Source: Streptomyces sp. DG2A-72 (GTDB taxonomy: Bacteria; Actinomycetota; Actinomycetes; Streptomycetales; Streptomycetaceae). From it: DNA of 64,000 bases. This document shows, piece after piece, positions 2 through 13,406 of this stretch (positions within the stretch are counted from its first letter, which is position 1; every line of letters starts with the position of its first letter). The notes under the pieces were generated by a model. It had not been told where the DNA came from, did no database searches, and saw only the letters and a list, made by a program, of their open reading frames with translations. The stretch covers positions 7,960,001 to 8,024,000 of the forward strand of contig NZ_JASTLC010000001.1 in the NCBI RefSeq assembly GCF_030499575.1. The letters are read 5' to 3'. The translations under genes were made by a program, and so were the position numbers.

Positions 2-451
2 ACGACGTTCGACCAGAACGAGGTGCGGCGGCATGTGACGGTGCTCGTCCTCACCGGCAACCGCTTCATCGTCAGCCACACCGATGAGCAGGCGGCCGAC
101 AGCACCTCGCCGACGCCGTACGCCACGACCTCCACCGAGTCGGTCAAGCTCAGCCGGATCTCGTCCGTCGTGGTCAGCCGGGTCGTCGCCAACCCGGAGT
201 CGTACACGCCGGGCAAGCTGCCCCGCGAGGTCGTGCTGACCATCGGCTGGGGCGCCGTCTCCCGGCTCGACCTGGAGCCCGCCGCCTGCGGTGACCCCAA
301 CTGCGAGGCCGACCATGGCTACACGGGCAGTTCGACGGCCGACGACCTCAGCCTGCGGGTCAGCGAGGCCGGCGACGGCCCGGAGACGGTCCGCCAGGCT
401 CTCGCCTTCGCCCAGTCGCTCTCCGAGGCGATCGCGGATCTCGACAGCTGA
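2..451 (+). CDS. DUF5998 family protein, C-terminal part (5' end outside window)
   Basis: The reading frame is open from base 2, so the gene begins upstream of the window; the GTG at 23 is internal. The visible roughly 150 residues match my memory of the actinobacterial DUF5998 family: a beta-rich domain with VTVLVLTGNRFIVSHTDE near the start and an ELDPxxC-like CGDPNCEADHGYTG segment carrying two cysteines and a histidine. No function is known for this family. Its TGA stop shares one base with the ATG of the next gene (TGATG at 449-453), so the two are translationally coupled. It may serve with the phosphodiesterase downstream, but that is inference from position only. Confidence 0.7.
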   Translation, partial: TTFDQNEVRRHVTVLVLTGNRFIVSHTDEQAADSTSPTPYATTSTESVKLSRISSVVVSRVVANPESYTPGKLPREVVLTIGWGAVSRLDLEPAACGDPNCEADHGYTGSSTADDLSLRVSEAGDGPETVRQALAFAQSLSEAIADLDS

Positions 452-1647
452 TGGTTCAGCCAGCCTGGGACACCCACCCGGAACCCCTCACCGTCGACTC
501 CGCCCCCCGGCCCGAGTACGGCAGCGGCTCACTCGCCGACCTGCTCCCCACGCTGGCCGCCGGCATGGACGTACCCGGAATGACCGCGGCCATTGAGGAG
601 CTGACCGCGGCCGACCGCAACTGCGTGTTCCTGATCGACGGCCTCGGCTGGGAGCAGCTGAAGGCGCACCCGCAGGACGCGCCCTTCATGACCTCCCTCA
701 TCAGCAGCTCGCGCGGGGGCACGGGCCGTCCGCTCACCGCCGGATACCCGGCGACCACCGCGACCTCCCTCGCCTCCGTCGGCACCGGCCTGCCGCCGGG
801 CGCCCACGGCCTGCCCGGATACACCGTCCGCAATCCGGCCACCGGCGAGCTGATGAACCAGCTGCGCTGGCATCCGTGGACCGCGCCGCGCCCCTGGCAG
901 CCGTACCCCACGGTCTTCCAACTGGCCCAGGACGCGGGCGTGCACGCGGCTCAGGTGACCTCTCCCGCCTTCCAGAACACCCCGCTGACGAAGGTGGCGC
1001 TCAGCGGCGGAACGTTCCACGGGCGGCTGACCGGCGAGGACCGCATGGATCTCGCGGCCGAGCAACTGGCCGCCGGCGACCGCGCGCTCGTCTACACGTA
1101 CTACGCCGAACTCGACGGCGCCGGCCACCGCTTCGGCGTCGACTCCGACACCTGGCGCGGCCAGCTGATGTACGTCGACCGGCTGGTCCAGCGCCTCGCC
1201 GAGCAACTGCCGCCGCGCACCGCGCTGTACGTCACCGCGGACCACGGCATGATCGACATCCCCTTCGACGAGCAGCACCGCATCGACTTCGACGAGGACT
1301 GGGAACTGCGCGCCGGCGTCGCCCTGCTGGGCGGCGAGGGCCGCGCCCGCCACGTCTACGCGGTGCCGGGCGCCGAGAACGACGTACTGACCTGCTGGCG
1401 CGAGGTGCTCGGCGAGCAGTTCTGGGTGGCGTCGCGGGACGAGGCGCTCGCGGCGGGCTGGTTCGGGCAGCCCGGGGAATGCGACGAGCGGGTGTACGAC
1501 CGGATCGGCGACGTCGTCGCGGCGGCACGGGACGACGTACTGATCATCGCCTCGGAGCGGGAGCCGAAGGAGTCGGCGATGGTCGGCAACCACGGCTCGA
1601 TGACCCCTGCCGAGCAGCTGGTCCCGCTGCTCGAAGTACGCTCCTGA
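451..1647 (+). CDS. Nucleotide pyrophosphatase / phosphodiesterase (alkaline phosphatase superfamily)
   Basis: A 398-residue type I phosphodiesterase of the alkaline phosphatase superfamily, expected to hydrolyse phosphodiester or pyrophosphate bonds with two metal ions. Visible motifs are VFLIDGLGW (metal-binding Asp near residue 63), YPATTATSLASVGTG holding the nucleophilic Thr, YYAELDGAGHRFG, TADHGMID and GNHGSM, in the usual order. There is no signal peptide, so it should be cytosolic. It overlaps the DUF5998 gene by one base and lies 43 bases upstream of tdk, so the three probably form one operon. The substrate cannot be read from sequence. Family assignment is secure; the exact activity is not. 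Confidence 0.85.
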   Translation: MVQPAWDTHPEPLTVDSAPRPEYGSGSLADLLPTLAAGMDVPGMTAAIEELTAADRNCVFLIDGLGWEQLKAHPQDAPFMTSLISSSRGGTGRPLTAGYPATTATSLASVGTGLPPGAHGLPGYTVRNPATGELMNQLRWHPWTAPRPWQPYPTVFQLAQDAGVHAAQVTSPAFQNTPLTKVALSGGTFHGRLTGEDRMDLAAEQLAAGDRALVYTYYAELDGAGHRFGVDSDTWRGQLMYVDRLVQRLAEQLPPRTALYVTADHGMIDIPFDEQHRIDFDEDWELRAGVALLGGEGRARHVYAVPGAENDVLTCWREVLGEQFWVASRDEALAAGWFGQPGECDERVYDRIGDVVAAARDDVLIIASEREPKESAMVGNHGSMTPAEQLVPLLEVRS

Positions 1648-1690: not shown

Positions 1691-2341
1691 ATGCCCGAGC
1701 TGGTGTTCTTCTCAGGGACGATGGACTGCGGGAAGTCAACTTTGGCGCTACAAATCGAACATAATCGATCGGCGCGTGGTCTGCAGGGGCTGATCTTCAC
1801 GCGTGACGACCGTGCGGGTGAGGGCAAGCTGTCGTCGCGTCTGGGGCTGGTGACCGACGCGGTGGAGGCCGGGCCGGGGCTGGATCTGTACGGGTATGTG
1901 GTGGAGCAGTTGTCTCGGGGTGGCCGGGTCGACTACGTGATCGTGGACGAGGCCCAGTTCCTGCTGTCCGGGCAGATCGACCAACTGGCCCGGATCGTGG
2001 ACGACTTGGAGCTGGACGTCTTCGCGTTCGGCATCACCACTGACTTCCGGACGAGGCTTTTCCCTGGCTCCCAGCGTCTGATCGAACTTGCCGATCGTCT
2101 GGAGACTTTGCAGGTCGAGGCGATGTGCTGGTGCGGTGCGCGGGCCACGCACAATGCACGCACCGTGGGTGGAGAGATGGTCGTCGAGGGGGAGCAGGTC
2201 GTCGTGGGCGACGTGGCTCAGTCGGCGGCGGAGGTCGGGTACGAGGTGCTCTGCCGACGTCATCACCGCAGGCGGATGACGAGCGCCACGGCGCGGGCGG
2301 CGGCGCTGTCGCCGGACGTGCTGCCGATCACCGCCACTTGA
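1691..2341 (+). CDS. tdk: Thymidine kinase, hybrid of native 5' end and island-borne 3' part
   Basis: A 216-residue type II thymidine kinase that phosphorylates thymidine to dTMP in the salvage pathway. It has the P-loop GTMDCGKST (residues 9-17), the DEAQF motif (86-90), the lasso region, and zinc ligands CWC (146-148) and CRRHH. The ATG at 1691 is preceded by AAAGG 13 bases upstream; an in-frame GTG at 1667 would add eight unlikely residues. From about codon 16 (1736) onward the DNA looks different from the flanks, with AT-rich codons such as CTA CAA ATC GAA CAT AAT CGA. A second, 5'-truncated tdk lies at 10816-11415. I infer that an element integrated here and rebuilt tdk with its own 3' part. 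The protein looks functional. Confidence 0.92.
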   Translation: MPELVFFSGTMDCGKSTLALQIEHNRSARGLQGLIFTRDDRAGEGKLSSRLGLVTDAVEAGPGLDLYGYVVEQLSRGGRVDYVIVDEAQFLLSGQIDQLARIVDDLELDVFAFGITTDFRTRLFPGSQRLIELADRLETLQVEAMCWCGARATHNARTVGGEMVVEGEQVVVGDVAQSAAEVGYEVLCRRHHRRRMTSATARAAALSPDVLPITAT

Positions 2342-2610
2342 CCTCCGGCCGGCGAGAAGCGCGTCGACTTGCCTGTCGGCCGCTGGCCATGGGGGAGCGA
2401 GTGTTGGGGAGCGGGAGGCTCTGGGCCGTGGGTTCAGGAGGGGCGGCCTTGGCCGCAGGTTTGAATCCTGGGCGGAAGTCGCAAACATGGGAAGCCGGAT
2501 CGACGCCGGGCAGGGGCGGATCATTGGTGGTGACGATCCCTGTCGCACTCCGAATGTGGTGCCGCCGGGGGAGTCGTGCCTCTGCGCAGGTTCGATGCCG
2601 ACACGGGTGG
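2342..2610. other. Non-coding left-end region of the island
   Basis: The space lies between convergent tdk and the beta-propeller gene. No convincing gene is visible. It contains a stretch resembling a tRNA T-arm around 2458-2472, but no matching acceptor stem or CCA. If the element kept regulatory or recombination arm sites, they would lie here, but I see no clear repeats. Confidence 0.4.
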
Positions 2611-4452
2611 TCATGTGTCTCCCTGGGGCTGCCCGGAGTGGGAGGCGGAGTCACGGGTGAGGGCGATGTCGTGTGGACCGGCGGACGGGACGGCGTCCGC
2701 GGTGCCGGGGGCGATATCGCCGTCGAACCGGTCGGTGAGGCAGTGCGCCAGCAGGCCGAGCGCGTCCCGTACGGCGGGATCGCCGATCCTGGTGCATAGG
2801 TCCCGCGCCTCAAGCAGGTGCTCGGGGCGGCAGTGCAGAAGCGGGCGCTCCAGGAGGGCGCGGGCGGCGGGCAGGTGAGGGCTGTGCACCTCGAAGCTCT
2901 TGCTGCCAGACGCCGCGATCGTGACGAACATGTCCTGGCCCGGAGACAGGGTGAGCAGCTGCCTGTACGCCGGCCACAGCGAACGGGGCGGAAGCCAGGG
3001 CAGGTCGTCGGTCACCCCGGGGTTGTACGCGCGGGCGGCGAAGGCGTCGTCGAGGACCGGCACCCGCCACCTGGAGAGGGGCCAGCCGTCACGGAGCTTG
3101 CCCAGGCGCCGTTCGACGAGGCTTGGGGCACCGTCGGGCGGGAACTCCCAGATCTCGGTGACCTCGTTCTCGGGCGGGGAGGCCAGACAGTGCAGCACCA
3201 GCACGTCCGGGGCAAGGAAGGAGAGCGCGGGGTGGTGGCGCGCGGTGCCGTCGGAGGTTTCGTACGCCGTCGTCTTGGCCAGGATGTCCCCGTCCTCGCT
3301 CGCCATGTACACCTGTCCTCTGCTGACGAACGCGAGGAGACGGGCCCCGGGCAGCGTCGCCAGGGCGGAGTACACGGAGTACGTCGACAGCCTGTCGCTC
3401 CCGGTGAATTGCGGCAGCGGCCGGTGTCGCAACCCGTCCGCGCCGGGGTCGAGGAAAGCCGGTCCCTCGGGACACAGCACCACCGCGCCGCGGCTCGTGC
3501 GCCGCAGGCGCGCCATACTCGCGGGCCCGCCGACGCGCTCGTTTGCGGGAAGGATCCGGAGAATCCGGTCGCGCCTCTTCGCCGCGACCGTGATCAGCAC
3601 CTCGTCGCCGAGGTGCAGGACCGAGTCGCCGGTCTCCGTTCCCCACAGGTCGCTTCCGCTGAAGCGGGGCGTGACCTCGCCCTCGCCTGTGCCGATCCGG
3701 AGTGTCTCCACATGGAGTTCGGTGGTCCCTCCAAACCTCCATCGGAGGTACCTCAGGGCGAGTTCGGAGGTGTCCGGCGAGAAGGAGGCGCCGTGGAGGC
3801 TGCTGTTGACCGGAAGGTCATGGGAGATCCTTCGGTATTGCGGCAACCGGTCGGTCAGGGCCCGCAGCGGGCCGGGTGAGGCCCTCGCGAGCAGTTCCAC
3901 GGCCTCCGCGGTGCGCTCCCGCGCGGGCAGCAGCCGGGCCGCCGTGACCGCCTTGGGCAGGGGCAGGTCGCGGGTGAGGCGGCGTAGCTCCGCCCACTCC
4001 TGACGCTCCGCCAACTGGTGGCCGAGATAGTCGAGTTCGTCGTACGACAGCTCCGCGACGCGGTCGCGCCGGTCGCCGGAGACCACCACCCGGACGACGT
4101 CGGCGTTCCCGTCGGCGGCCATAACCGTACGCAGCCGCTCGCGCACCTCCCCGGCCGCCGCCCGGTATCCCAGGGCCAGCAGGGAACCGTCCGGATCCAG
4201 CGCCTGCCGCTGGGCGTGTTGTCCGATCAGGGTCAGGTAGGCGGCCCGGTCGGCGGGTTGCTCGGGGGCGGCTGCCAGCAGGTCGAGGACGTCGGGTTCG
4301 GGCAGTTCGGCGGTGCGTACGGCGTCTTGCGCGGCAGGGTCGCCCTCCGCGCACGCCCGTACCAGGCGGCGCCAGGCGAACCGGGCGAGCGGGCCTCGGG
4401 AGCCGTCGCGGCGGCGACGCAGGGCGCGGTCACTCCAGGGGGCGGTGCGCAT
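2611..4452 (-). CDS. Alpha-solenoid / beta-propeller (WD40-like) protein of island cargo
   Basis: A 613-residue protein with a helical N-terminal third (motif GQHAQRQALDPDGSLLALGY, then a segment ending AERQEWAELRRLT) followed by about 300 residues of beta-propeller-like repeats with recurring xxFSPDxxELAL and LHLGDEVLITV strands. It ends in a short domain, CTRIGDPAVRDALGLL ... DIALT, that recurs in two neighbours. The ATG at 4452 is chosen over an upstream start at 4494 because it overlaps the end of the preceding gene by 23 bases, as expected for coupling. No signal peptide or membrane segment is visible. Such proteins accompany DUF2997/radical-SAM modules; I infer a scaffold or sensor role. 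It looks intact, unlike its paralogue upstream. Confidence 0.7.
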   Translation of the reverse strand: MRTAPWSDRALRRRRDGSRGPLARFAWRRLVRACAEGDPAAQDAVRTAELPEPDVLDLLAAAPEQPADRAAYLTLIGQHAQRQALDPDGSLLALGYRAAAGEVRERLRTVMAADGNADVVRVVVSGDRRDRVAELSYDELDYLGHQLAERQEWAELRRLTRDLPLPKAVTAARLLPARERTAEAVELLARASPGPLRALTDRLPQYRRISHDLPVNSSLHGASFSPDTSELALRYLRWRFGGTTELHVETLRIGTGEGEVTPRFSGSDLWGTETGDSVLHLGDEVLITVAAKRRDRILRILPANERVGGPASMARLRRTSRGAVVLCPEGPAFLDPGADGLRHRPLPQFTGSDRLSTYSVYSALATLPGARLLAFVSRGQVYMASEDGDILAKTTAYETSDGTARHHPALSFLAPDVLVLHCLASPPENEVTEIWEFPPDGAPSLVERRLGKLRDGWPLSRWRVPVLDDAFAARAYNPGVTDDLPWLPPRSLWPAYRQLLTLSPGQDMFVTIAASGSKSFEVHSPHLPAARALLERPLLHCRPEHLLEARDLCTRIGDPAVRDALGLLAHCLTDRFDGDIAPGTADAVPSAGPHDIALTRDSASHSGQPQGDT

Positions 4453-6940
4453 CGGTGGCGTATCCCCTCTCTCCCCGTGTCTCTCCCAGCGCAATCGCGT
4501 CGCCGGGTGGCGCGTCCGGCGGGACGCCGATTCCGATGTCGTGGCGGAAGCGGTGTTCCAGGCAGGCCCGCAGCAGGGTCAGCACCGCGCGGGACTCCTG
4601 GTCGAGGGCGGGGTTCTGCTCGACCGCGATCACGTCCGCCAGGTTGTGCCGCGTCATCAGGCCCAGGGGCCGGGCGACGAACGGGGGCAGGGTGAGGACG
4701 CCGAGGGCGTACAGGTTGATCGCGTTGTGCTTGTCGTCCACGGCGAGTACGTCGCCTCGCGGTGACAGCCGTGCCTCGGTCGCCGCGTCCTGGCTTCCGA
4801 CGAGGGCGATGCTCGCGGAGACGGGATGGTGCTCGTCCCGGGTCGGCGGGACGTCGAGGAGCTGCAGATGTGCCCGGGTGACCGCCAGGAAGCGGTTCAG
4901 CGCGGGCGACCAGAAGACGGCGCTGGGGCGCTCCCGTAGCAGCCCTCCCTTGCCATAGCGCAGCCGGGGGCCGGTCGTCGCCGGTGGACCCACTGCGGTG
5001 AGCGGGTCGTGCCACACGTGCAGACGGCCCTCGAAATCGCAGCTGATCAGGGTCGCAGGCGACAGGGCGGCCTGCCATGTGGCATTGCTCCGGGGCGAGC
5101 CGTCCGCGCCCTTGGGCAGTCTGTTCGCCTCGGCACCGCCGAGCCGGACGAGCACGCCCTCGTTGTCGTCGAACACGGCGATCAGCCGGCCTTCCGGATC
5201 CACCGCGGTGGCTCTCGGATGGATGCCGTCGACACCACCGAGTCCGGCCGGCGGCACGTCGGAGTCGGCGGTGAGCACCGTGCACCCCGCGGGGCGGTCC
5301 GTGGACACGATGAAGGACCGGTCTCCGGCGACGCGCTCCAGGGCGAGGATCTCGCCCGCTCCGAAGCCGGGCTCTGTTCGCACACCGTTGTGGTCGGCGA
5401 GGTGGATGCGCATCGTGTGGTCGACATCCGCGGTGGCGAGGAAGGACTCCGGGTCGTACTCCGCGACCGCGACCGTGTCGGAGCCGAGATGAGCGACGTA
5501 CCCCAGCGGATAGGTGAAGCCCGTGTGGAGCTGCGAGAGTGTTCTGCCGGTGAGGTCCACGATTCCGGCGACGTCGTCCGTGGCGCCGGGCGGGAGGCCT
5601 TCGACGGAACCCGAGCCGATGAAGGCGAGTTGGGTGCCGTCCGGCGCGAAGTCGAAGGTGCGGAAGACGTCGATCCGCTCGTCGAGCTCTTCGGGCCTGA
5701 TCCGGGTGTGCGGGGTGTCCCAGGACGACGGTACGGCGGACCAGGCGTCCACGCGGTCCCGTACGGCGGCCGGGTCCACGGCACGCAGCGCCTCGAACAG
5801 CCGGCGGTCGTCCTCACCGGCCGGCCGCCAGGCGCCGAACGCGCGGACCGTGCCGACGGCTTCGGCCAGCGGCAGCAGCGGGGTGATCCGCTAGAGCCCG
5901 GCCCAGTCGCGTCGGTCAGTCAACTGCCGTACCGCGTACGCCCGTTCCTGCTCGTCCAAGGCGGTGGCGGTGGGCTGCGTGGCGTCGCCCGCCAGCACCC
6001 GTAGAACGTCGAGGCCGCCGAGCCCGGTCATCGCTTCCCGCAGCGCCGAGCGCTCCTCGGACGGTGCGCCGCGGTAGCCGAGCGCCAGCAGCACGCCGTC
6101 GGGATCCAACGCCCGGTAATGGCTGTGCTGTCCGGTGCGGACGAAGAAGACGACGCGCTCCACCTCGCCGGCGGGAGCCAGCCCCCGCGCCACGCAGAAG
6201 GCGATCGCCTCCGGTACATCCCGGTCCACCGCCGCCGCACAGAACAGGTCTACGGCTTCGGGGTCACCCGACGTGAGGAGGCGGGCGCGGGCGCGTTCCC
6301 CGAGGGGGTGAGTGAAGCGGAGGGCGGCGTCGGCGAGGACGTCCGAGGGGAGCGGGATGGTGTCCTGGGGCTGGGGCTCGCTGGGTGTCTCGACGGGTGC
6401 CTTGCCGGGTTTCTCCTCGGGCATCGCGCCGCTCCCGCCCTCCGGTTGCCGTGCGCGGGTAGGCGTGGGCGAGAGTGCCAGTCGGCTGTGGGCCCACGTC
6501 CGGGGATCCGTGGGCGTCGCGGCACGCGCCCAGCCCTCCAGCAGCGACCACAGTGCCGGATCGTGGGCGTTCAGCCAGTCATGCCAGGCCGCGTCAACGA
6601 CCGCGTCGGGCACCGGCGTCGCGGTCTCCAGGAGCAGGGGCACGGCCGGGGTGCTCCAGCGGGCCGGGGCCGGTCCGGACACCGCGGGGTCCAGCCAGGC
6701 CCGCCACACTGCCTCGGCACCCTGGGATCTGACGGCCCGGGCGAGCGGGCGCGTGACCCCCGGTGCGCCGGAAGCGGCCGCGCGCAGCACGCGCCGCGTG
6801 GCCCACCGGATCGGGAGGGAGCCCTTCGGGAGCGCCGACCGCAGCACGAGCGCGGCGGTGCGCAGGTCCATGTGCCGCGGATCCGTGTGTCTTGGTCCCG
6901 TGCGCCGCGACTCCACACGCCTCATTCCCACGCCCCTCAC
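4430..6940 (-). pseudogene. Second solenoid/beta-propeller gene interrupted by an in-frame TAG
   Basis: Reading from a GTG at 6940, the frame is open for 349 codons to a TAG (bases 5891-5893) and then stays open in the same frame to 4430, for 836 codons in total. The stop falls inside conserved sequence: DRRDWAGL-stop-RITPLLPL aligns with QEWAELRRLTRDLPL of the downstream paralogue. The N-terminal part carries GQHSHYRALDPDGVLLALGY; the C-terminal part is a beta-propeller (residues about 400-770) and ends with the shared short domain (FRHDIGIG ... DAIALG). Either this is a nonsense mutation or two fragments are made: an internal ATG at 5779 has no convincing ribosome site. Pseudogene is the simpler reading. 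Confidence 0.75.
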
Positions 6941-6943
6941 CCC

Positions 6944-7228
6944 TCACCTCTCCTGTCCCTCGCCGAGCCCTCGCTCCCCGCCGAGTGCGATGTCCGTGGC
7001 CCCGCCTGCCACCACGGGCCGCGCCGACCCCAGTCCGATGTCGTGTCCGAAGCGTTCCTCCAGGCCGTACTGGAGACGGCGGAGGGCGTCTCGCACCGCC
7101 GGGTCGCCGATCCTCGGCAGCAACTCCTGAACCTTCCGGAGCTGTTGCGGATCACCGTGTGCCGGCGGCCGTCGCAGCAGCTCGCGTGCGACAGGGAGGA
7201 TCTCGTCACGGATGCCCACGCTGCCCAC
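6944..7228 (-). CDS. Small standalone copy of the propeller-protein C-terminal domain
   Basis: A 94-residue protein beginning GTG at 7228 behind AAGGAG. It carries PRIGDPAVRDALRRLQYG ... RFGHDIGLG ... TDIALGGE, nearly the same motif that ends the two beta-propeller proteins downstream. It stops three bases before the GTG of the next gene, so it belongs to the same transcript. The function is unknown. A small, partner-recognition or assembly domain shared by all three proteins is a reasonable inference. It could alternatively be the surviving tail of a third propeller gene that was deleted, but its own start and ribosome site look normal. Confidence 0.6.
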   Translation of the reverse strand: MGSVGIRDEILPVARELLRRPPAHGDPQQLRKVQELLPRIGDPAVRDALRRLQYGLEERFGHDIGLGSARPVVAGGATDIALGGERGLGEGQER

Positions 7229-7256
7229 TCAGAACTCTCCTTCCGCGCCGACCGGC

Positions 7257-7750
7257 TAGGCCATGCCGGTGAACGTCACCGTCGCGTCGCCGGCGACGGT
7301 GACGTCCAACTACGGTACGGCGGTCAGGTCACCGGCGTGCAGCGGCCGGTGCGCAGCCAGTACTCCTTGTTCGACGAGCCCCGCAGCCCCCGGGCCAGCT
7401 GGAGCCGCGGGTTGTAGCGTCCGGCGATCACCAGATCGGCGTCGGCGACGGCCGCCGACCGGGCCGCGTCCACCTCGATGCCGGCGCGGGAGAACCCGCT
7501 CAGCACGATTACCGACAGGCTGCCCCAGCGGCTCGCCGCCGGTCAGGGTGACGCCGTCGATGTGCGCGGCGTCGGCCAGCGCCTCCTCGGCCACCCCGTC
7601 GGCCGTAGGCACGAGAGCGGAGCCGGCTGCCGAGTGGGTCTCGGGATTGAAGCACCCCGGGCAGCCCAGGGCGCACCCCTGGCTCCAGACGACGAACCGG
7701 ACCCTCGAGCCCTTGGCGGCACTTCGGGGCACGACGGCATGCACCGCCAC
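7257..7750 (-). pseudogene. Radical-SAM (NrdG-like 4Fe-4S) protein, frameshifted and internally deleted
   Basis: The N-terminal part reads VRFVVWSQGCALGCPGCFNP, with the CxxxCxxC cluster that binds the radical-SAM 4Fe-4S centre, and then the SAM-binding GVTLTGGEPL. Immediately after that the frame is lost near 7525. The next recognisable part, LSVIVLSGFSRAGIEV ... DLVIAGRYNPRLQ ... SNKEYWLRTGR, lies in another frame and stops at 7324, and the expected tail (LDVTVAGDATVTF) is in a third frame ending at 7257. Family members carry some 30-40 residues between GGEP and the LSVIV strand, so a deletion is likely. Such proteins accompany DUF2997. A GTG at 7750 is the likely start. Confidence 0.8.
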
Positions 7751-7766
7751 GGCGTGCGCGGGCCGC

Positions 7767-7985
7767 TCACCCCTGCCACAGGCGGTCCTGCTCCTCGGCC
7801 GCGCCCTGCTGGTAGGCCTCCTCGGTGAGCACCTGGTGCTCCACCGTTCCACCGAGCAGCCGGACCAACTCGTCGGTGTCCTGCAGACACCGTGTGCCGG
7901 AGACCCCTTGGACGTGCACCTCCACGGTGCCGTCCGCCGCGATGACGACCTCGATACTCTCCTCCGCCATCAACTCACCCTTCAC
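7767..7985 (-). CDS. DUF2997 family protein
   Basis: A 72-residue small beta-alpha protein: IEVVIAADGTVEVHVQGVSG followed by a conserved CLQDTDELVRLLG helix, the typical DUF2997 layout. The start may be ATG 7985, which overlaps the stop of the upstream gene (ATGA), or ATG 7970 (MAEES). From family knowledge, DUF2997 proteins are encoded beside DUF1257 (Ycf35-like), a Ycf46-like AAA ATPase and a radical-SAM protein; here only the broken radical-SAM neighbour remains, and the ATPase and DUF1257 genes are absent. The biochemical role is unknown. The gene itself looks intact. Confidence 0.75.
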   Translation of the reverse strand: MKGELMAEESIEVVIAADGTVEVHVQGVSGTRCLQDTDELVRLLGGTVEHQVLTEEAYQQGAAEEQDRLWQG

Positions 7986-8236
7986 CCGGGGGAAATGACT
8001 CCACTCACTATGCGGGGCGGGACTCGGGAGGGGTCCCAGGGGAAGCGGGCGTCATCGGACGGCTTGGTGTCGGTGCCGGAGGCGATGAGGGCGAGGATGG
8101 CCCGGACCGTGTACTCCGGCTGGAACACGCCACCGGCGTCTCGCAATCCCCAGATCATGCGCGGGCCCAGATAGAGGAGGAGCAGCGCGGCCGTCACCGT
8201 CGCCGTGATGCGGGCGCGACGGCATGCACCCGCCAC
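7982..8236 (-). CDS. Small hypothetical protein with one membrane segment
   Basis: An 84-residue reading frame from a GTG at 8236, with one N-terminal hydrophobic helix (ITATVTAALLLLYLG, residues about 10-24) and a soluble tail containing YTVRAILALIASGTD and FPWDPSRVPP. Its stop overlaps the start of the DUF2997 gene by four bases, which supports real translation. I do not recognise the family. It is divergent from the membrane-protein gene at 8366. It could be the tail of a lost larger gene, since the first codons lack a clear ribosome site. Confidence 0.5.
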   Translation of the reverse strand: MAGACRRARITATVTAALLLLYLGPRMIWGLRDAGGVFQPEYTVRAILALIASGTDTKPSDDARFPWDPSRVPPRIVSGVISPG

Positions 8237-8365
8237 GGCGTTTGACGTGTGCGGGGCGCTCGGGGGTCATGCCCGGGACCGTACGTCCGAAGCTCCGGGA
8301 CCCCTCCCAGACGCAGAGTCGCACCATTCGGTGAGCCAGACGTCCTGCGATCGAGGGAGATCAGC

Positions 8366-9770
8366 ATGGGCAACCCGACGTACGCCGCCGGGCCCGTGGT
8401 GCCGGAGCCGGCCGAGGGCAGGGCGTACGACCCGCTGGCCGTCGCCCTGGGCAACGCCTCCCTGCTCGGCGTCGGCTGTCTGTTGATGCGGCGGTGGAAG
8501 CTCGCCGTCGCCGCCGCAGCCGGCACCGTCATACTCGTCTCCCGGCTCGTGTCGACCGAAGAGGCGTCGTACGAGATCACAGTGCTCGTGTGGTGGGCAG
8601 CCGTCATCATCCACGGGTGGTATCTGGCAGGCAGGGGCGCCGACCGGGTCGCCGTACCCCGTCAGCGCCTGGTCACGCTGCCGGTGCTGCTGACCGCGCG
8701 GCTTGCGCGGTTCGACGCCTCCCAGATCGGGCAGAGCGTCACCGATGCCCGCGAACGCGGCGATCGCGCAGGGGTGTTGAGCGCCCAGGACGAGGTGTGG
8801 TTCGGGCACCGCATCGCCGATGCGCCACTCGCCGCCCGCGGCGACGAAGCCGTATGAGCCTGCGAGCGGCTGCAGACGGCCCGGACCGAGCTGACCACCG
8901 GGCTCACCGGGGACACCGAGGCTCTGGAGGACGGCTTCGGCACGCTCGCCTCGGTGCTCGCGGAGCCCGGCAACGACAAGACGGTCGAGACAACCCTGAA
9001 CGGATTCCTCCGCGGCCTGCCCGCCAAAGACCCCTGCGACACGGTCACCGTCACCGACTGGCTCCGCGACCGGAAGCGGAGCAACGACGTTCTGGACCAG
9101 ACCTCCGACACGGTCGAACGGATCGAGCCCGCCGCGCTCGTCGGGTGCGCCGACGGCCTCATGGCGGACGACAGCTGGGAGTCGGCCCGCGCACACTACG
9201 AGCAGCTGCTCGACCAGTACCCCGACGACGACCTTGCGGACCAGGCCCGGACGGGAGCCAGGAAAGCCACGCTGAACATACATCGAGCTGGCCAACGTCC
9301 GCAGCCTGCTCGCGGGCGGCACCGGCGCACAGCCCAAGTACTGCTCCAGCCCGGCGAAGTACAGCGGAGCCAAGCCCATGGGCACCAACCCCGCGCTGTT
9401 CTACCCCGACAGCGAGTATGCCATCGACCACTCGGAGAAACTCCCCGGCTCCTGGAAGGCCGACGGCCCCACCGACGCTGTCCTGGTGGTCTGCATGGGC
9501 GAGACGACGTTCGGAAGCCCCGTCGAGACCTGCTCGTATTACCAGAGCGGGTCTTCCGGCGCTGTCTCGAACGTGTCCTTCTACAAGATCGCGATCCCGG
9601 TAAAGGTGTACGAGTTGCGCACGGGGAAGATCGTCGTCAACCGCACGATCCGGATCAACGGCACGAGTTGCCCGGAGACCATCTACACATCCAAGGACTC
9701 GACAAGCGAGTACGTCGTGGAGACCACGTCCGACGTGAAGGCTGCCTTCCGGCCGCTGGTCGTCCGGTGA
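8366..9770 (+). pseudogene. Membrane-anchored repeat protein broken by TGA and a 4-bp duplication
   Basis: The ATG at 8366 follows GAGGGAGA. The N-terminal part has hydrophobic segments LGNASLLGVGCLLM, LAVAAAAGTVILVS and ITVLVWWAAVIIHGWYL. An in-frame TGA at 8855-8857 interrupts it, after which the same frame continues with a helical, TPR-like stretch (ARAHYEQLLDQYPDDDLADQ). At 9276-9283 ACAT is duplicated, which shifts the frame; the new frame then reads ELANVRSLLAGG and runs to 9770. The last part is a beta-rich extracytoplasmic-looking domain with two cysteine pairs (VVCMGETTFG, ETCSYYQSG). Intact relatives occur in Streptomyces as hypothetical proteins. Function is unknown. Confidence 0.8.
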
Positions 9771-10017
9771 GCGGTGGCGCGGACCGTGGCTTCGGAGGAT
9801 GGACGTCCTGGGACGGCTCGCGGGCAAGGCCAGTGAGCATGAGGCCGACGGCCGCAAGGAGCTGTGCTGGTCCAGAAAGGTCTGGAAGGCAGTCGGCGGC
9901 GATACCGACCGGAGCGGCTGGTCGTGGTTCTGGTCCTGGAGCCCGTTGATCGGGCTCATCGGGCTGTTCGGGTTCCTCTGTGAACGCGGCGGCCCGAAGA
10001 CCAACGAGTACGGTCGC

Positions 10018-10555
10018 ATGGACATGCCTGCACGAGTGAAGCGCGTCGCGGCGGTGGTGGTCGCGGGCGTACTGGCCGTCGGCGGTTGTTCGTCGGACAA
10101 GGACACGGACACATCCGAGGCCAAGCCGTCACCCGGCGCCTCCAAGCCCGCTGAACCCGCGTCCCCGAGCCCGTCTCCGACCGGCCCACTGCCCAAGGCC
10201 AAGGACGGCAAGGACACCGGAGCCTGCAAGGACGGGAACTGCGAAATCCTCGTCACCGAGCCGGTGGCCGTCGTGATCGGCGACGGGTATCTGCACGCGC
10301 TTCGAGTCCTCGGAATTCCTGGGCTATGTGAGCTTCGGCAACGGCGGGGAAGCCGCGTTCTCCACAGCGGGCGGCAAGAAGACCACCGTCGACGCCACCG
10401 CGGTCAACAAGGATGGCGCCATACTTGAAGTTCAGTACGAAGTAGCTCCGCAGGGGGAGAAAGAGGCTGAAGCTTCCCTTGGACTGGACACCGAACCCGA
10501 TTGCTCGCGGTCTTCTCGCGGTCGTCGTCCTGCCCTTCGGCGACCTACAGGGTAA
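10018..10555 (+). pseudogene. Secreted lipoprotein gene with a single-base frameshift
   Basis: From ATG 10018 (or 10024) the product has a lipoprotein signal peptide: MPARVKR, a hydrophobic AAVVVAGVLAVGG stretch and the lipobox cysteine, then a Ser/Pro/Lys-rich linker and TGACKDGNCEILVTEPVAV. Near 10298-10301 the frame changes by one base: the sense continues in another frame as FESSEFLGYVSFGNGG ... VDATAVNKDGAILEVQYEV. Removing one C at about 10300 restores continuity. The 3' end after 10500 also looks degenerate. Between 9771 and 10017 I see no convincing gene, only a weak open frame. The role is unknown; it presumably sat outside the cell near the preceding membrane protein. Confidence 0.7.
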
Positions 10556-10592
10556 ACAGGGCACGCCGGTCGCAGCATTTGGCCGTTGTCCA

Positions 10593-10781
10593 GCTCACCC
10601 GGCCGCCATGGCGGAGTGGGCTAGGAACAGCGTCCCTGCGCTGCTGGCCATCTACGCTCGCCGCATTTCGGGATCCCGGTCGTCTGCGACCGCAACGGGC
10701 ATCAGGAACAAGGCCACTCACACATGGCAGATCGGCCCATCCGCACCCGCCACCATCCCGGGCCAGCGGGCCTCATTCTGA
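10593..10781 (+). pseudogene. Relic of a phage-type tyrosine integrase C-terminus
   Basis: One frame reads AAMAEWARNSVPALLAIYAR followed by RISG. Streptomyces tyrosine integrases end with a closely similar block (VAEWAGxSVxVLLxxYAxCIxG), in which the Tyr is the nucleophile. No upstream catalytic Arg or His box is present, and no start fits, so only the last part survives. It reads toward the right junction and stops at 10781, about 35 bases before the truncated tdk begins, which is where an integrase is expected in an integrative element. The match is short and made by eye. Confidence 0.6.
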
Positions 10782-10815
10782 AAGATCAGTAGATGGTGGA
10801 TGGTCAAGCAAAAGG

Positions 10816-11415
10816 ACGCTGGCTCTCCAGATAGAGCACAACCGTTCGGCGCGCGGACTGCAGGGCGTGATCTTCACGCGCGACGACCGTGCGGGCGAGG
10901 GCAAGCTGTCGTCCCGGCTCGGGCTGGTCACGGACGCGGTGGAGGTCGAGGACGGGCAGGACCTGTACGCCTACCTCGTCGACCACCTCTCCCACGGTGG
11001 CCGCGCGGACTACGTCATCGCGGACGAGGCGCAGTTCCTCGCGCCGGAGCAGATCGACCAACTCGCGCGCGTGGTCGACGATCTGGGCCTCGACGTCTAC
11101 GCCTTCGGCATCACGACCGACTTCCGCTCCAAGCTGTTCCCGGGGTCCCAGCGCCTCGTCGAACTCGCCGACCGGGTCGAGGTCCTCCAGGTCGAGGCCC
11201 TGTGCTGGTGCGGTGCCCGCGCCACGCACAACGCCCGCACGATAGGCGGCGCGATGGTCGTCGAGGGTGCCCAGGTCGTCGTCGGCGACGTCAACCAGGC
11301 CGACGACATCGGCTACGAGGTCCTGTGCCGCCGCCACCATCGCCGCCGTATGACCGCGGCGACGGCACACGCGGCGGCGCTGTCACCGGATGTCCTGCCG
11401 GTTTCGTCGGCCTGA
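10816..11415 (+). pseudogene. tdk: Displaced native 3' part of thymidine kinase (5'-truncated)
   Basis: From 10816 the frame encodes TLALQIEHNRSARGLQG and then the whole remainder of a thymidine kinase, including DEAQF, CWCGA and the CRRHHRRR zinc end, closely matching residues 17-216 of the intact copy at 1691. The first 16 residues, including most of the P-loop (GTMDCGKS), are missing and replaced by unrelated island sequence. Without a P-loop it cannot bind ATP, and no suitable start or ribosome site is present. Its codon use matches the following core genes better than the left copy does, which suggests that this is the original 3' end. Confidence 0.88.
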
Positions 11416-11459: not shown

Positions 11460-12254
11460 TCAGGCCGGGCTCTGGACCAGGCAGAACCTGGCGCCCTCGG
11501 GGTCCGCGACCGTGGCCACGCGGCCGTGTTCGGTGTCGTGGGCCGGCTTGAGGACATGCCCGCCGAGGTCGGCGACCTGGGCGAGGCTCTCGTCCGTGTC
11601 GGCGACTTCGAAGTACGTCACCCAGTGCGGACCCCGGTCACGGGGCAGGGAGTTGCCGACGCCGTGGATACCGGCGACCGGGCGGCCGTCGATGAGCAGG
11701 GTCACGTGGTCGAAGTCGGCGGAGACCACCGGCTCCTCGTCGTAGGCGAACACGGTCTCGTAGAACTTGGCGACGCTCGCCGACTCGAAGGTCAGCAGGT
11801 CATGCCAGGCCGGAGTGCCGGGCACCCCGGCGATGGCCGTGCCGCGATGCGCCGCCGCCTGCCACACGCCGAAGACCGCGCCCGACGGATCCGAACCGAT
11901 CACCAGCCGCCCGGCCTCCTCCGCGTCCAGCGGGCCCACCCCGACGGTGCCGCCGCACAGCCGTACCGTCTCGGCGGTCAGATCGACGTCGTCCGAGGCC
12001 AGGTAGGGCGTCCAGGCGATGGGGAGATGCCGGTCCGGCGGGAGCTGGCCGATGCCGGCCACTTCACAGCCGTCGAGCAGCGCCCGCACATAGGGGCCGA
12101 GCTGCCGGGGGCCGGGCCGGAACTCCCAGCCGAACAGAGCCCCGTAGAACTCCTGGGTCGTGGCCAGTCCGTGCGCCATCAGACTCACCCAGCAGGGCGT
12201 GCCGGGCGCGTGCGTTTCGCCGTTCGGGCCGGCCGACCCCCGTGCCTCGGTCAT
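11460..12254 (-). CDS. Two-domain VOC (glyoxalase/bleomycin-resistance fold) family protein
   Basis: A 264-residue protein of two vicinal-oxygen-chelate modules. The first (residues about 20-135) opens with PCWVSLMAHGLATTQEFYG and ends DPSGAVFGVWQ; the second (about 145-262) opens PAWHDLLTFESASVAKFYE and ends DPEGARFCLVQS. The ATG at 12254 has CGAGGAGAG upstream. No signal peptide is visible. Such proteins often act as small-molecule hydroxylase-like or resistance enzymes, but the substrate is unknown. It is convergent with the tdk relic; a perfect 12-base palindrome, CCTGAGCTCAGG (11453-11464), overlaps its stop. Confidence 0.8.
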   Translation of the reverse strand: MTEARGSAGPNGETHAPGTPCWVSLMAHGLATTQEFYGALFGWEFRPGPRQLGPYVRALLDGCEVAGIGQLPPDRHLPIAWTPYLASDDVDLTAETVRLCGGTVGVGPLDAEEAGRLVIGSDPSGAVFGVWQAAAHRGTAIAGVPGTPAWHDLLTFESASVAKFYETVFAYDEEPVVSADFDHVTLLIDGRPVAGIHGVGNSLPRDRGPHWVTYFEVADTDESLAQVADLGGHVLKPAHDTEHGRVATVADPEGARFCLVQSPA

Positions 12255-12551
12255 CGTCACTCTCTCCTCGACCCCTTGCGGCAGCCGTGTCGCCGCCGCT
12301 CTGCGGACCCCCGTGCCGATGCTCGCACCCCCGTGGGACCGCGCGCTCCGGGCGCGCCGCCGTCTTTGCGGCCCATGCCCGGAGAATGACCGGTGTGCGG
12401 TTCCTCGCCCATTTCGGTGCGATTGCCGACGGATGTCGATCTGCTGTACAGCATGTGCCCGATCCCGTACGCCTCGTGATCGGGGCTGTACGGCCGAGCA
12501 GAGTAGCCGGACATGGACGACGCGGCCACCCCATACGCAAGGATGGTGGCC

Positions 12552-13406
12552 ATGAACGCCATCATCTTCGCAACCGAACTCGCGAGCGAGCTGGCGGGAG
12601 TGACCCCGCCCGTCCTGCTCGATGTCCGCTGGCAGCTGAGCGTGGCCAAGGCGGCCGGCGAACCGCCCTTCGACGGACGGGCCGAGTACGAGGCCGGGCA
12701 CCTCCCCGGCGCGGTCTACGTCGATCTGGACCGGGAACTCGCGTCGGCACCGGGCGAACGCGGCCGGCATCCGCTGCCCGACATGGCGGAATTCGGTACG
12801 GCCATGCGCCGGGCCGGTGTCTCGTCATCGGTCCCCGTGGTCGTGTACGACGGCGGCCAGGGCTGGGCCGCGGCACGCGCCTGGTGGCTGCTGCGCTGGA
12901 CGGGGCATCCGGAGGTGCGGGTCCTCGACGGCGGGCTGCCCGCTTGGCAGGGCCCGCTGGAGACGACCGTGCCCGTGCCGGCCGAGGGCGATTTCCAGCC
13001 GGTGCCGGGGGCGGTGGACATGCTGGATGCCGATGGGGCCGCGGCGTTGGCACGGAGCGGCGTGCTGCTCGACGCGCGGGCGGGGGAGCGGTACCGGGGA
13101 GAAGTGGAGCCGATCGATCCGGTAGGTGGGCACATTCCGGGCGCCGTGTCCGCGCCCACGAACGAGAACGTGGCGCAGGACGGCCGCTTCCTCGCCGCGG
13201 ACGAGCTCCGGGCCCGGTTCAAGACTCTGGGTGTGTCCGAGGACGGCCCGGAGGTCGGCGTGTACTGCGGTTCGGGAGTCTCCGGCGCCCATGAGGTACT
13301 CGCCCTGGCGGTCGCGGGGATTCCGGCGGCGTTGTACGTGGGGTCCTGGTCGGAGTGGTCCGCGGATCCGTCCCGGCCGGTTGCCGTGGGGCCGGATCCT
13401 CAATAG
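12552..13406 (+). CDS. Sulfurtransferase with two rhodanese domains
   Basis: A 284-residue thiosulfate/3-mercaptopyruvate sulfurtransferase. An N-terminal, inactive rhodanese domain (LLDVRWQL ... HLPGAVYVDLD) is followed by a C-terminal catalytic one (DARAGERYRGEVEPIDPVGG) whose active-site loop is CGSGVSG, with the Cys that carries the persulfide. The CGSGV loop is the type seen in mercaptopyruvate enzymes, not the CRKGV of classic rhodaneses. ATG 12552 is preferred because AAGGA lies nine bases upstream; ATG 12543 is possible. It is monocistronic and ends in a strong shared terminator with sepH. Confidence 0.88.
   Translation: MNAIIFATELASELAGVTPPVLLDVRWQLSVAKAAGEPPFDGRAEYEAGHLPGAVYVDLDRELASAPGERGRHPLPDMAEFGTAMRRAGVSSSVPVVVYDGGQGWAAARAWWLLRWTGHPEVRVLDGGLPAWQGPLETTVPVPAEGDFQPVPGAVDMLDADGAAALARSGVLLDARAGERYRGEVEPIDPVGGHIPGAVSAPTNENVAQDGRFLAADELRARFKTLGVSEDGPEVGVYCGSGVSGAHEVLALAVAGIPAALYVGSWSEWSADPSRPVAVGPDPQ

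What the first reader, a model, noticed from the sequence alone, without database searches (positions are those of the whole stretch)
1691..11415. A 9-kb element inserted inside tdk that brings its own 3' tdk part
An intact tdk lies on the left, a 5'-truncated tdk on the right beginning at the codon for Thr17, and the core neighbours of tdk continue beyond it. The switch falls right at the P-loop lysine codons. Integration inside a housekeeping gene with restoration of its 3' end is well known for tRNA genes and a few protein genes, but I know of no described tdk site in Streptomyces.
Basis: partly seen in the sequence, partly recalled or inferred. Interest (0 to 1): 0.85.

Follow-up and report, generated by a model that had tools for sequence, protein, structure and literature searches.

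The report
Mobile element that replaces its target
In this Streptomyces genome a decayed mobile DNA element sits inside the thymidine kinase gene; relatives show that such elements enter this gene at one fixed point in its active-site code and bring a complete replacement copy with them.

Summary
Confirmed and extended. The left tdk (1691-2341) is intact and foreign from between codons 8 and 16 on; the right copy (10816-11415) is the native gene without its first 16 codons. Three relatives have an uninterrupted tdk there. The event recurs in Streptomyces: a right-junction pattern occurs in 15 of 392 genomes (25 places, reversed control 0); 30 of 31 right-junction loci continue in frame with Tdk residues 18-32. 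Exact left junctions occur in 6 of 392 genomes; in all six the native 5' stub is followed by an element end and a complete second tdk. Element ends are inverted repeats symmetric about the AC of the Thr17 codon, as in a serine-integrase attP, and in two genomes a 562-aa large serine integrase starts 19 bp from the right end. Element tdks show purifying selection and are AT-rich around the target. The window's copy has lost integrase and left arm. Ten literature searches found no described tdk site. I file it as a new variant of serine-integrase elements. That the AT-rich segment is recoding that protects the rescue gene is inference.

The parts
451..1647 (+). Left core neighbour, type I phosphodiesterase / nucleotide pyrophosphatase family
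   Evidence: Pfam PF01663 180 bits; next to tdk in the relatives
1691..2341 (+). Intact hybrid tdk: native 5' end, element-derived from between codons 8 and 16 on
1739..1740 (+). AC of the Thr17 codon, the place of the crossover dinucleotide; the P' arm that relatives have here is missing
   Evidence: Junction comparison; no attL match in G000
2342..10792 (.). Eroded interior of the element; parts shared with G022 (8084-9810, 85%) and G007
2611..6940 (-). Three open frames (627, 449, 349 aa) without a known family
   Evidence: Pfam, NCBIfam, PADLOC: no match
7310..7852 (-). Fragment of a radical-SAM activase
   Evidence: Pfam Fer4_12 and weak Radical_SAM; NrdG-like below cut-off
10793..10815 (+). 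P arm of attR (23 nt)
   Evidence: Pattern match at 10794 with 0 mismatches; symmetry of such arms; letters checked
10816..11415 (+). Native tdk lacking codons 1-16, beginning with AC of Thr17
11460..12179 (-). Right core neighbour, glyoxalase-like
12543..13406 (+). Right core neighbour, rhodanese
   Evidence: found in 19 of 19 genomes

Best explanation
The window holds the eroded remains of an integrative element of a family that enters tdk by large-serine-integrase recombination. attP (about 48 bp, two 23-nt inverted arms around AC) crosses with attB, the P-loop codons of tdk, at the AC of Thr17. This leaves attL (native codons 1-17 plus the P' arm) on the left and attR (P arm plus native tdk from Thr17) on the right, so the host gene is cut in two. 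Just inside attL the element carries a complete tdk with its own start region, so the cell keeps a thymidine kinase. In the window, integrase and P' arm have since been lost, and recombination between the native 5' stub and the 5' end of the element's tdk restored the native upstream region and start, giving the fused gene seen now. Shown: junctions, arm symmetry, empty sites, integrase next to attR in two relatives, complete element tdks, purifying selection. Inferred: that this integrase does the reaction, the secondary fusion, and spread by conjugative mobilization.
For: Right junctions at the same place in 15 of 392 genomes, reversed control 0; 30 of 31 matched loci run in frame with Tdk residues 18-32. 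Exact left junctions in 6 of 392 genomes, complete tdk behind the P' arm in 6 of 6, one of them (G302) of the window's type. Arms symmetric about AC: 14, 14, 18, 15 of 23 in four genomes, at most 3 of 20,000 shuffles as high. 562-aa integrase with Resolvase, Recombinase and zinc-ribbon domains 19 bp from the arm in G012 and G257; N-terminal fossils of it in G302, G377 and G046. Empty sites in three relatives. Same cargo next to right junctions in different genomes at up to 98% or more. dN/dS 0.02-0.12 among 8 tdks, 28 pairs.
Against: No integrase and no P' arm in the window. Intact integrase next to a right junction in only 2 of the 15 genomes. Two further relatives of the integrase, in G175 (80%) and S. 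monashensis = G302 (70-82%), lie in the tdk islands but not next to a tdk. No free attP in viral contigs. The base states at 24, 27 and 30 of the left tdk do not give one clean switch point. The relaxase module rests on one rearranged locus, G012.
Confidence: 0.86

Rival explanations
1. Tandem duplication of tdk in this lineage, followed by divergence and insertion of unrelated DNA between the copies.
For: Two tdk copies in tandem in the window.
Against: The copies fall in different, well-supported clades; relatives have one copy and contiguous flanks; junctions recur at one dinucleotide in other genomes.
Confidence: 0.02
2. A foreign tdk with flanking DNA came in by homologous recombination in tdk, without site-specific recombination; the arm motif is a by-product.
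For: The left gene of the window is a hybrid, and arrays of tdk repeats offer homology for exchange.
Against: One fixed junction with symmetric arms and an adjacent integrase. Later exchange of whole modules between tdk repeats remains likely as a second process.
Confidence: 0.06
3. A DDE transposon of Tn7-like habit with terminal inverted repeats that targets tdk.
For: The element ends are inverted repeats.
Against: A large serine integrase lies at the end in two genomes and the two arms meet symmetrically at a shared 2-bp AC. I did not run a targeted search for DDE/TniQ genes at the other ends.
Confidence: 0.03
4. The window's type of element brings only the 3' part of tdk inside its attachment site, as tRNA-integrating elements do, and the fusion is the direct product of integration.
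For: Window, G007 and G022 show a fused gene without stub or P' arm.
Against: G302 carries the window's type of tdk complete, behind stub and P' arm, as does G191.
Confidence: 0.03

Closest known systems
Streptomyces phiJoe and SCO2603-type serine-integrase elements (PMC5311408, passages read)
   Same: Large serine integrase next to attP; attP of 45-50 bp with imperfect inverted repeats and a central dinucleotide; the site is a hotspot with very variable cargo.
   Different: Their attB is 74 bp from the end of a radical-SAM gene, so the gene may stay functional; no replacement gene is described in the passages. Here codon 17 of 217 is cut and a complete gene is supplied.
Integrative and mobilizable elements with serine recombinases (PMC5704250, passages read)
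   Same: Single serine integrase, relaxase and MobC at one locus (G012), specific site, accretion into composite islands.
   Different: The review passage says that integration of site-specific serine IMEs disrupts genes dispensable to the host; here the element carries a replacement.
SCCmec / Enterococcus cassette chromosome at rlmH (PMC6222049, passages read)
   Same: Large serine recombinase islands in a conserved gene, variable cargo, att sites with dyad symmetry.
   Different: Site in the 3' region of the gene, CcrAB pair, no complete second target gene in the passages.
Elements that rebuild an end of their target gene (SXT at prfC, prophage e14 at icd, tRNA islands; recalled, not searched)
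   Same: Element-borne sequence restores the interrupted gene.
   Different: They restore one end of the gene; here a complete second gene stands behind a displaced stub.
Engineered phiBT1 vectors pNG1-4 (PMC7460540, passages read)
   Same: The inserted DNA carries a copy of a gene (SCO4849) to undo the damage of its own integration.
   Different: Made by people; the natural phage does not do this as far as the passage says.

Membership tests
Large-serine-integrase integrative element | Large serine recombinase encoded next to the attachment site | tested here: met
   Met in G012 and G257; in the window itself not met, no relative found
Large-serine-integrase integrative element | attP of about 45-50 bp, imperfect inverted repeat about a 2-bp crossover | tested here: met
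   48 bp reconstructed from the junctions of G257, G012, G175, G302; no free attP seen
Large-serine-integrase integrative element | attL and attR are reciprocal hybrids at one chromosomal site | tested here: met
   Both junctions in G012, G175, G257 and, on two contigs, G302; the window has attR only
Large-serine-integrase integrative element | Integration and excision by the integrase | not testable with these tools
   Needs an assay
Integrative and mobilizable element (IME) | Relaxase / mobilization genes, no transfer apparatus of its own | tested here: inconclusive
   Relaxase and MobC next to the G012 integrase, a relaxase fragment in G257; absence of transfer genes not tested; none identified in the window
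AICE (pSAM2-like actinomycete ICE) | TraB/FtsK-type transfer gene and RepSA, RepAM or Prim-Pol | not tested
   No family search was run for these genes
SCC-type cassette chromosome | Insertion at rlmH | tested here: not met
   The site is tdk codon 17
Temperate phage | Phage structural genes, close integrase relatives in phages | tested here: inconclusive
   Best phage integrases are under 60% identical, top rows about 32%; structural genes not searched

The most novel reading that the evidence does not exclude
A natural self-rescuing insertion system: the element targets the P-loop codons of a conserved enzyme gene, a segment whose sequence can hardly change, and carries a complete replacement gene whose target segment has been synonymously recoded so that the same integrase uses it poorly. 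Displaced tdk stubs, truncated copies and homologous exchange between tdk repeats turn the locus into a growing cassette array.
Probability: 0.35. Interest if true: 0.78.

Novelty: new variant of a known kind. Interest (0 to 1): 0.64.

Why it matters
It gives Streptomyces a new, well-defined candidate serine-integrase site (attP, attB and a 562-aa integrase that can be tested) and shows an unusual way of making a damaging insertion tolerable: bring the whole broken gene along. The arrays of truncated tdk copies record successive insertions and mark a place to look for strain-specific cargo. It also warns that the tdk of a number of strains is not the vertically inherited gene, which matters where tdk is used as a marker or counter-selection target.

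Tried and rejected
Tandem duplication was rejected by the tree and the empty sites. A tRNA or structured RNA behind the left tdk, suggested by a T-arm-like motif at 2396-2464: none found (ARAGORN, Rfam). A free attP in viral contigs: no exact match of the pattern. Close integrase relatives in phages and plasmids: all matching records under 60% identity. tdk in phages: all matches under 60% and none covering 80% of the query; in plasmids one Streptomyces record at 80% (not followed up). Defence-system cargo in 7 window proteins: none. The idea that G012 carries a 147-kb element was dropped because the span contains what I read by eye as core genes such as the ATP synthase operon.

Recoding is kept only as inference. 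GC at third positions in codons 10-25 minus codons 34-164 is -0.18 to -0.28 in 6 of 6 tdks that stand behind a P' arm (5, G302); 38 natives have mean -0.049, SD 0.069, lowest -0.165 (40 native loci were listed, 38 gave a usable frame). Against it: the six are not independent (G012/G257, G191/G175 and G302 share stretches); of the hybrid or element-like copies only the window's (-0.26) is outside the native range, while G007, G022, G194 and G086 lie inside it; natives also dip near the start; and element-type tdks have themselves been targeted (truncated copies in G097, G377 and G635), so protection is not absolute.

One search gave a wrong zero for tdk because of a bad program option; one search repeats it correctly.
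Full report
Observation. The window lies at G000:C1:7960001-8024000, and both tdk matches of that genome are in it. The left one, 1691-2341, is complete (216 aa; thymidine kinase in Pfam and NCBIfam). The right one has native homology from the AC of the Thr17 codon at 10816 to the stop at 11415. AC to AC is 9,077 bp. In relatives G009, G001 and G013 the left flank and the right flank from 10815 are contiguous: empty sites.

Which copy is native. The truncated copy is 90% identical in DNA to native tdk of G009 and G017 and 77% to the left tdk. In a tree of codons 18 onward (63 rows) the right copy groups with G097's intact tdk and native G001 (98/95), with G009 joining at 95/79; the left copy groups with G007, G022, G191 and the truncated copies of G097 and G377 (100/99), then with the element copies of G175 and G239 (87/84, not a starred fork). 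The left gene is a hybrid. Of the positions where native G009 and the complete element tdk of G302 differ, 4, 10, 21 and 30 are native in the window, 24, 27 and all six from 48 to 63 are element-like; the 22 bases upstream match G009 (20 of 22 by eye) and not G302. The switch therefore lies between codons 8 and 16, or was more than one exchange.

Same event elsewhere. A protein search of 295 Streptomyces genomes found tdk in 287; 24 of the 295, the window's genome included, gave more than one match. Not all of these are insertions: G031 and G154 have a tdk split near codon 182, G041 and G146 are unclear, and G108, G110, G169 and G227 show only degenerate tails. The junctions show two signatures. 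Right: an element end like ATGGCGGAT(A/G)CCCAAGCAAAAGG, then AC and tdk from codon 17. Left: native tdk codons 1-17 up to AC, then an element end like CGACTTTCTTGGGTATTCGCCAT. A right-junction pattern (at most 2 mismatches) matched 25 places in 15 of 392 Streptomyces genomes, reversed pattern 0. In an overlapping draw of 391 genomes of the order, 6 matched, all Streptomyces; 0 of the 23 from other genera did. In 30 of the 31 distinct loci of both searches Tdk residues 18-32 follow in frame; the pattern itself fixes a few of those bases. A left-junction pattern matched exactly in 6 of 392 genomes (G191, G302, G175, G257, G239, G012), plus two three-mismatch hits that I take as chance because the control gave one. 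In all six a complete tdk starts 80-130 bases after the AC, behind its own GAAAGG-type ribosome-binding site. In G302 that tdk is 98% identical in protein to the window's left tdk.

Recombinase. In G012 and G257 (Streptomyces sp. AP-93, L129) a 562-aa protein with Resolvase, Recombinase and zinc-ribbon domains starts 19 bp from the right arm and reads into the element. N-terminal fossils of it lie at the same place in G302, G377 and one G046 site (read by eye, G302 also by alignment), and a weak one in G519. In the genus draw 15 of 295 genomes have a relative at E 1e-60, but only three are close (100, 98, 80%; the rest 42% or less). The 80% one (G175, Streptomyces sp. CB02959) and the one in S. 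monashensis lie within the tdk islands but do not abut tdk. Right and left arms of one genome are inverted repeats symmetric about AC: 14, 14, 18 and 15 of 23 positions in G257, G012, G175 and G302; at most 3 of 20,000 shuffles reach this, and registers shifted by 1-4 give at most 10. Passages on phiJoe describe the same form: attP of 45-50 bp, imperfect inverted repeat, central dinucleotide, 18 bp upstream of int (PMC5311408). Beside the G012 integrase lie a MobA/VirD2-like relaxase, MobC and an IstB-like ATPase; G257 keeps a relaxase fragment. I therefore think of mobilizable elements, but this rests mainly on one locus, and the span between the G012 junctions contains core genes (named by eye), so that locus is rearranged.

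Insertion and array growth. The left neighbour and the rhodanese gene were located in 19 of 19 genomes. In 16 both are on one contig. In 15 of the 16 the gap exceeds the native one of about 1.9 kb, from 3.1 kb (G167) to 172 kb (G012, rearranged); the window has 10.9 kb. The exception, G097, has the native spacing, so its locus is empty; a truncated window-type tdk with a right arm like the window's lies about 39 kb away on its contig. G046, G257 and G209 carry arrays: an intact tdk followed by five or six truncated copies or remnants with cargo between them. Cargo next to right junctions is shared between genomes in different combinations: G046 and G257 98% over 2.5 kb, G046 and G209 97%, G209, G321 and G199 95-96% (25 junctions compared). 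Discrete units ending at AC have thus moved between strains.

Why carry a tdk. Pairwise dN/dS of 8 left tdks over codons 18-165 is 0.02-0.12 (28 pairs), so they have been selected for function. tdk is not strictly needed: 8 of 295 genomes gave no match. The tdks behind a P' arm are AT-rich at third positions round the target: -0.18 to -0.28 in 6 of 6, against a native mean of -0.049 and lowest value of -0.165 in 38 natives. This fits recoding of the target in the rescue copy, but it could also reflect a new translation start, the copies are not independent, and element-type tdks have been hit as well (G097, G377, G635).

The window's copy. The P arm is present at 10793-10815; the P' arm and any relative of the integrase are absent. 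The interior has a radical-SAM activase fragment (7310-7852) and frames without known families. Parts are shared with G022 (8084-9810, 85%) and G007, which hold the same type of left tdk between the same neighbours with other deletions; G022 keeps only the tail of the native tdk. I read the three as one old insertion, or a few related ones, decaying separately (inference).

Comparison. Passages of an IME review say that integration of site-specific serine IMEs disrupts dispensable genes (PMC5704250). Passages on Streptomyces integration systems (PMC12924846; PMC7460540; PMC5311408) name no tdk site; in the first 'kinase' does not occur, in the second 'thymidine' does not. The actinobacterial ICE survey PMC3218068 has no hit for tdk or thymidine kinase. 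Ten full-text searches listed no paper on a tdk insertion site; I judged from listings, and the library is limited to open-licence papers. I file this as a new variant of the serine-integrase element: known machinery, a new site in a P-loop, and a complete, selected replacement gene.

The odds of the rival 'only the 3' part is brought' went down for that reason.

Noticed in passing
G012 chromosome 2473505-2629990 (L066, L067, L079, L080, L180-L184): Core genes (ATP synthase operon, rho, threonine genes; named by eye) lie between the two tdk junctions, so the chromosome has been rearranged around the element.
   Followed up: partly
G097:C131:2784-3395 (L143): A truncated window-type tdk with a right arm like the window's lies about 39 kb from an intact native tdk locus, next to a very long open frame (2,314 aa); how it got there is not explained.
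   Followed up: partly
window 2396-2464: A tRNA T-arm-like motif (GCAGGTTTGAATCCTG) behind the left tdk, with copies in G191, G022 and, twice, G097; no tRNA or Rfam family was found.
   Followed up: partly
L130 and L131, around 11680 in the reversed locus: Integrase relatives in CB02959 and S. monashensis start next to the same non-tdk sequence with a P-like arm; possibly a second target site within the islands.
   Followed up: no
G031:C1:1939818-1940552 and G154:C1:1885523-1886263 (L076, L077): tdk appears split near codon 182 in two genomes by a short extra stretch, unrelated to the P-loop junction.
   Followed up: no
G191 island (L038, L039): Extra copies of what look like isoprenoid-pathway genes (IspD, IspE, IspG-like, by eye) with an adenylation enzyme and an ATP-grasp enzyme: a possible biosynthetic cluster.
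   Followed up: no
8 of 295 Streptomyces genomes (G008, G045, G047, G050, G105, G152, G184, G198): No tdk match at all, in some of them although the genome is rated 99-100% complete.
   Followed up: no
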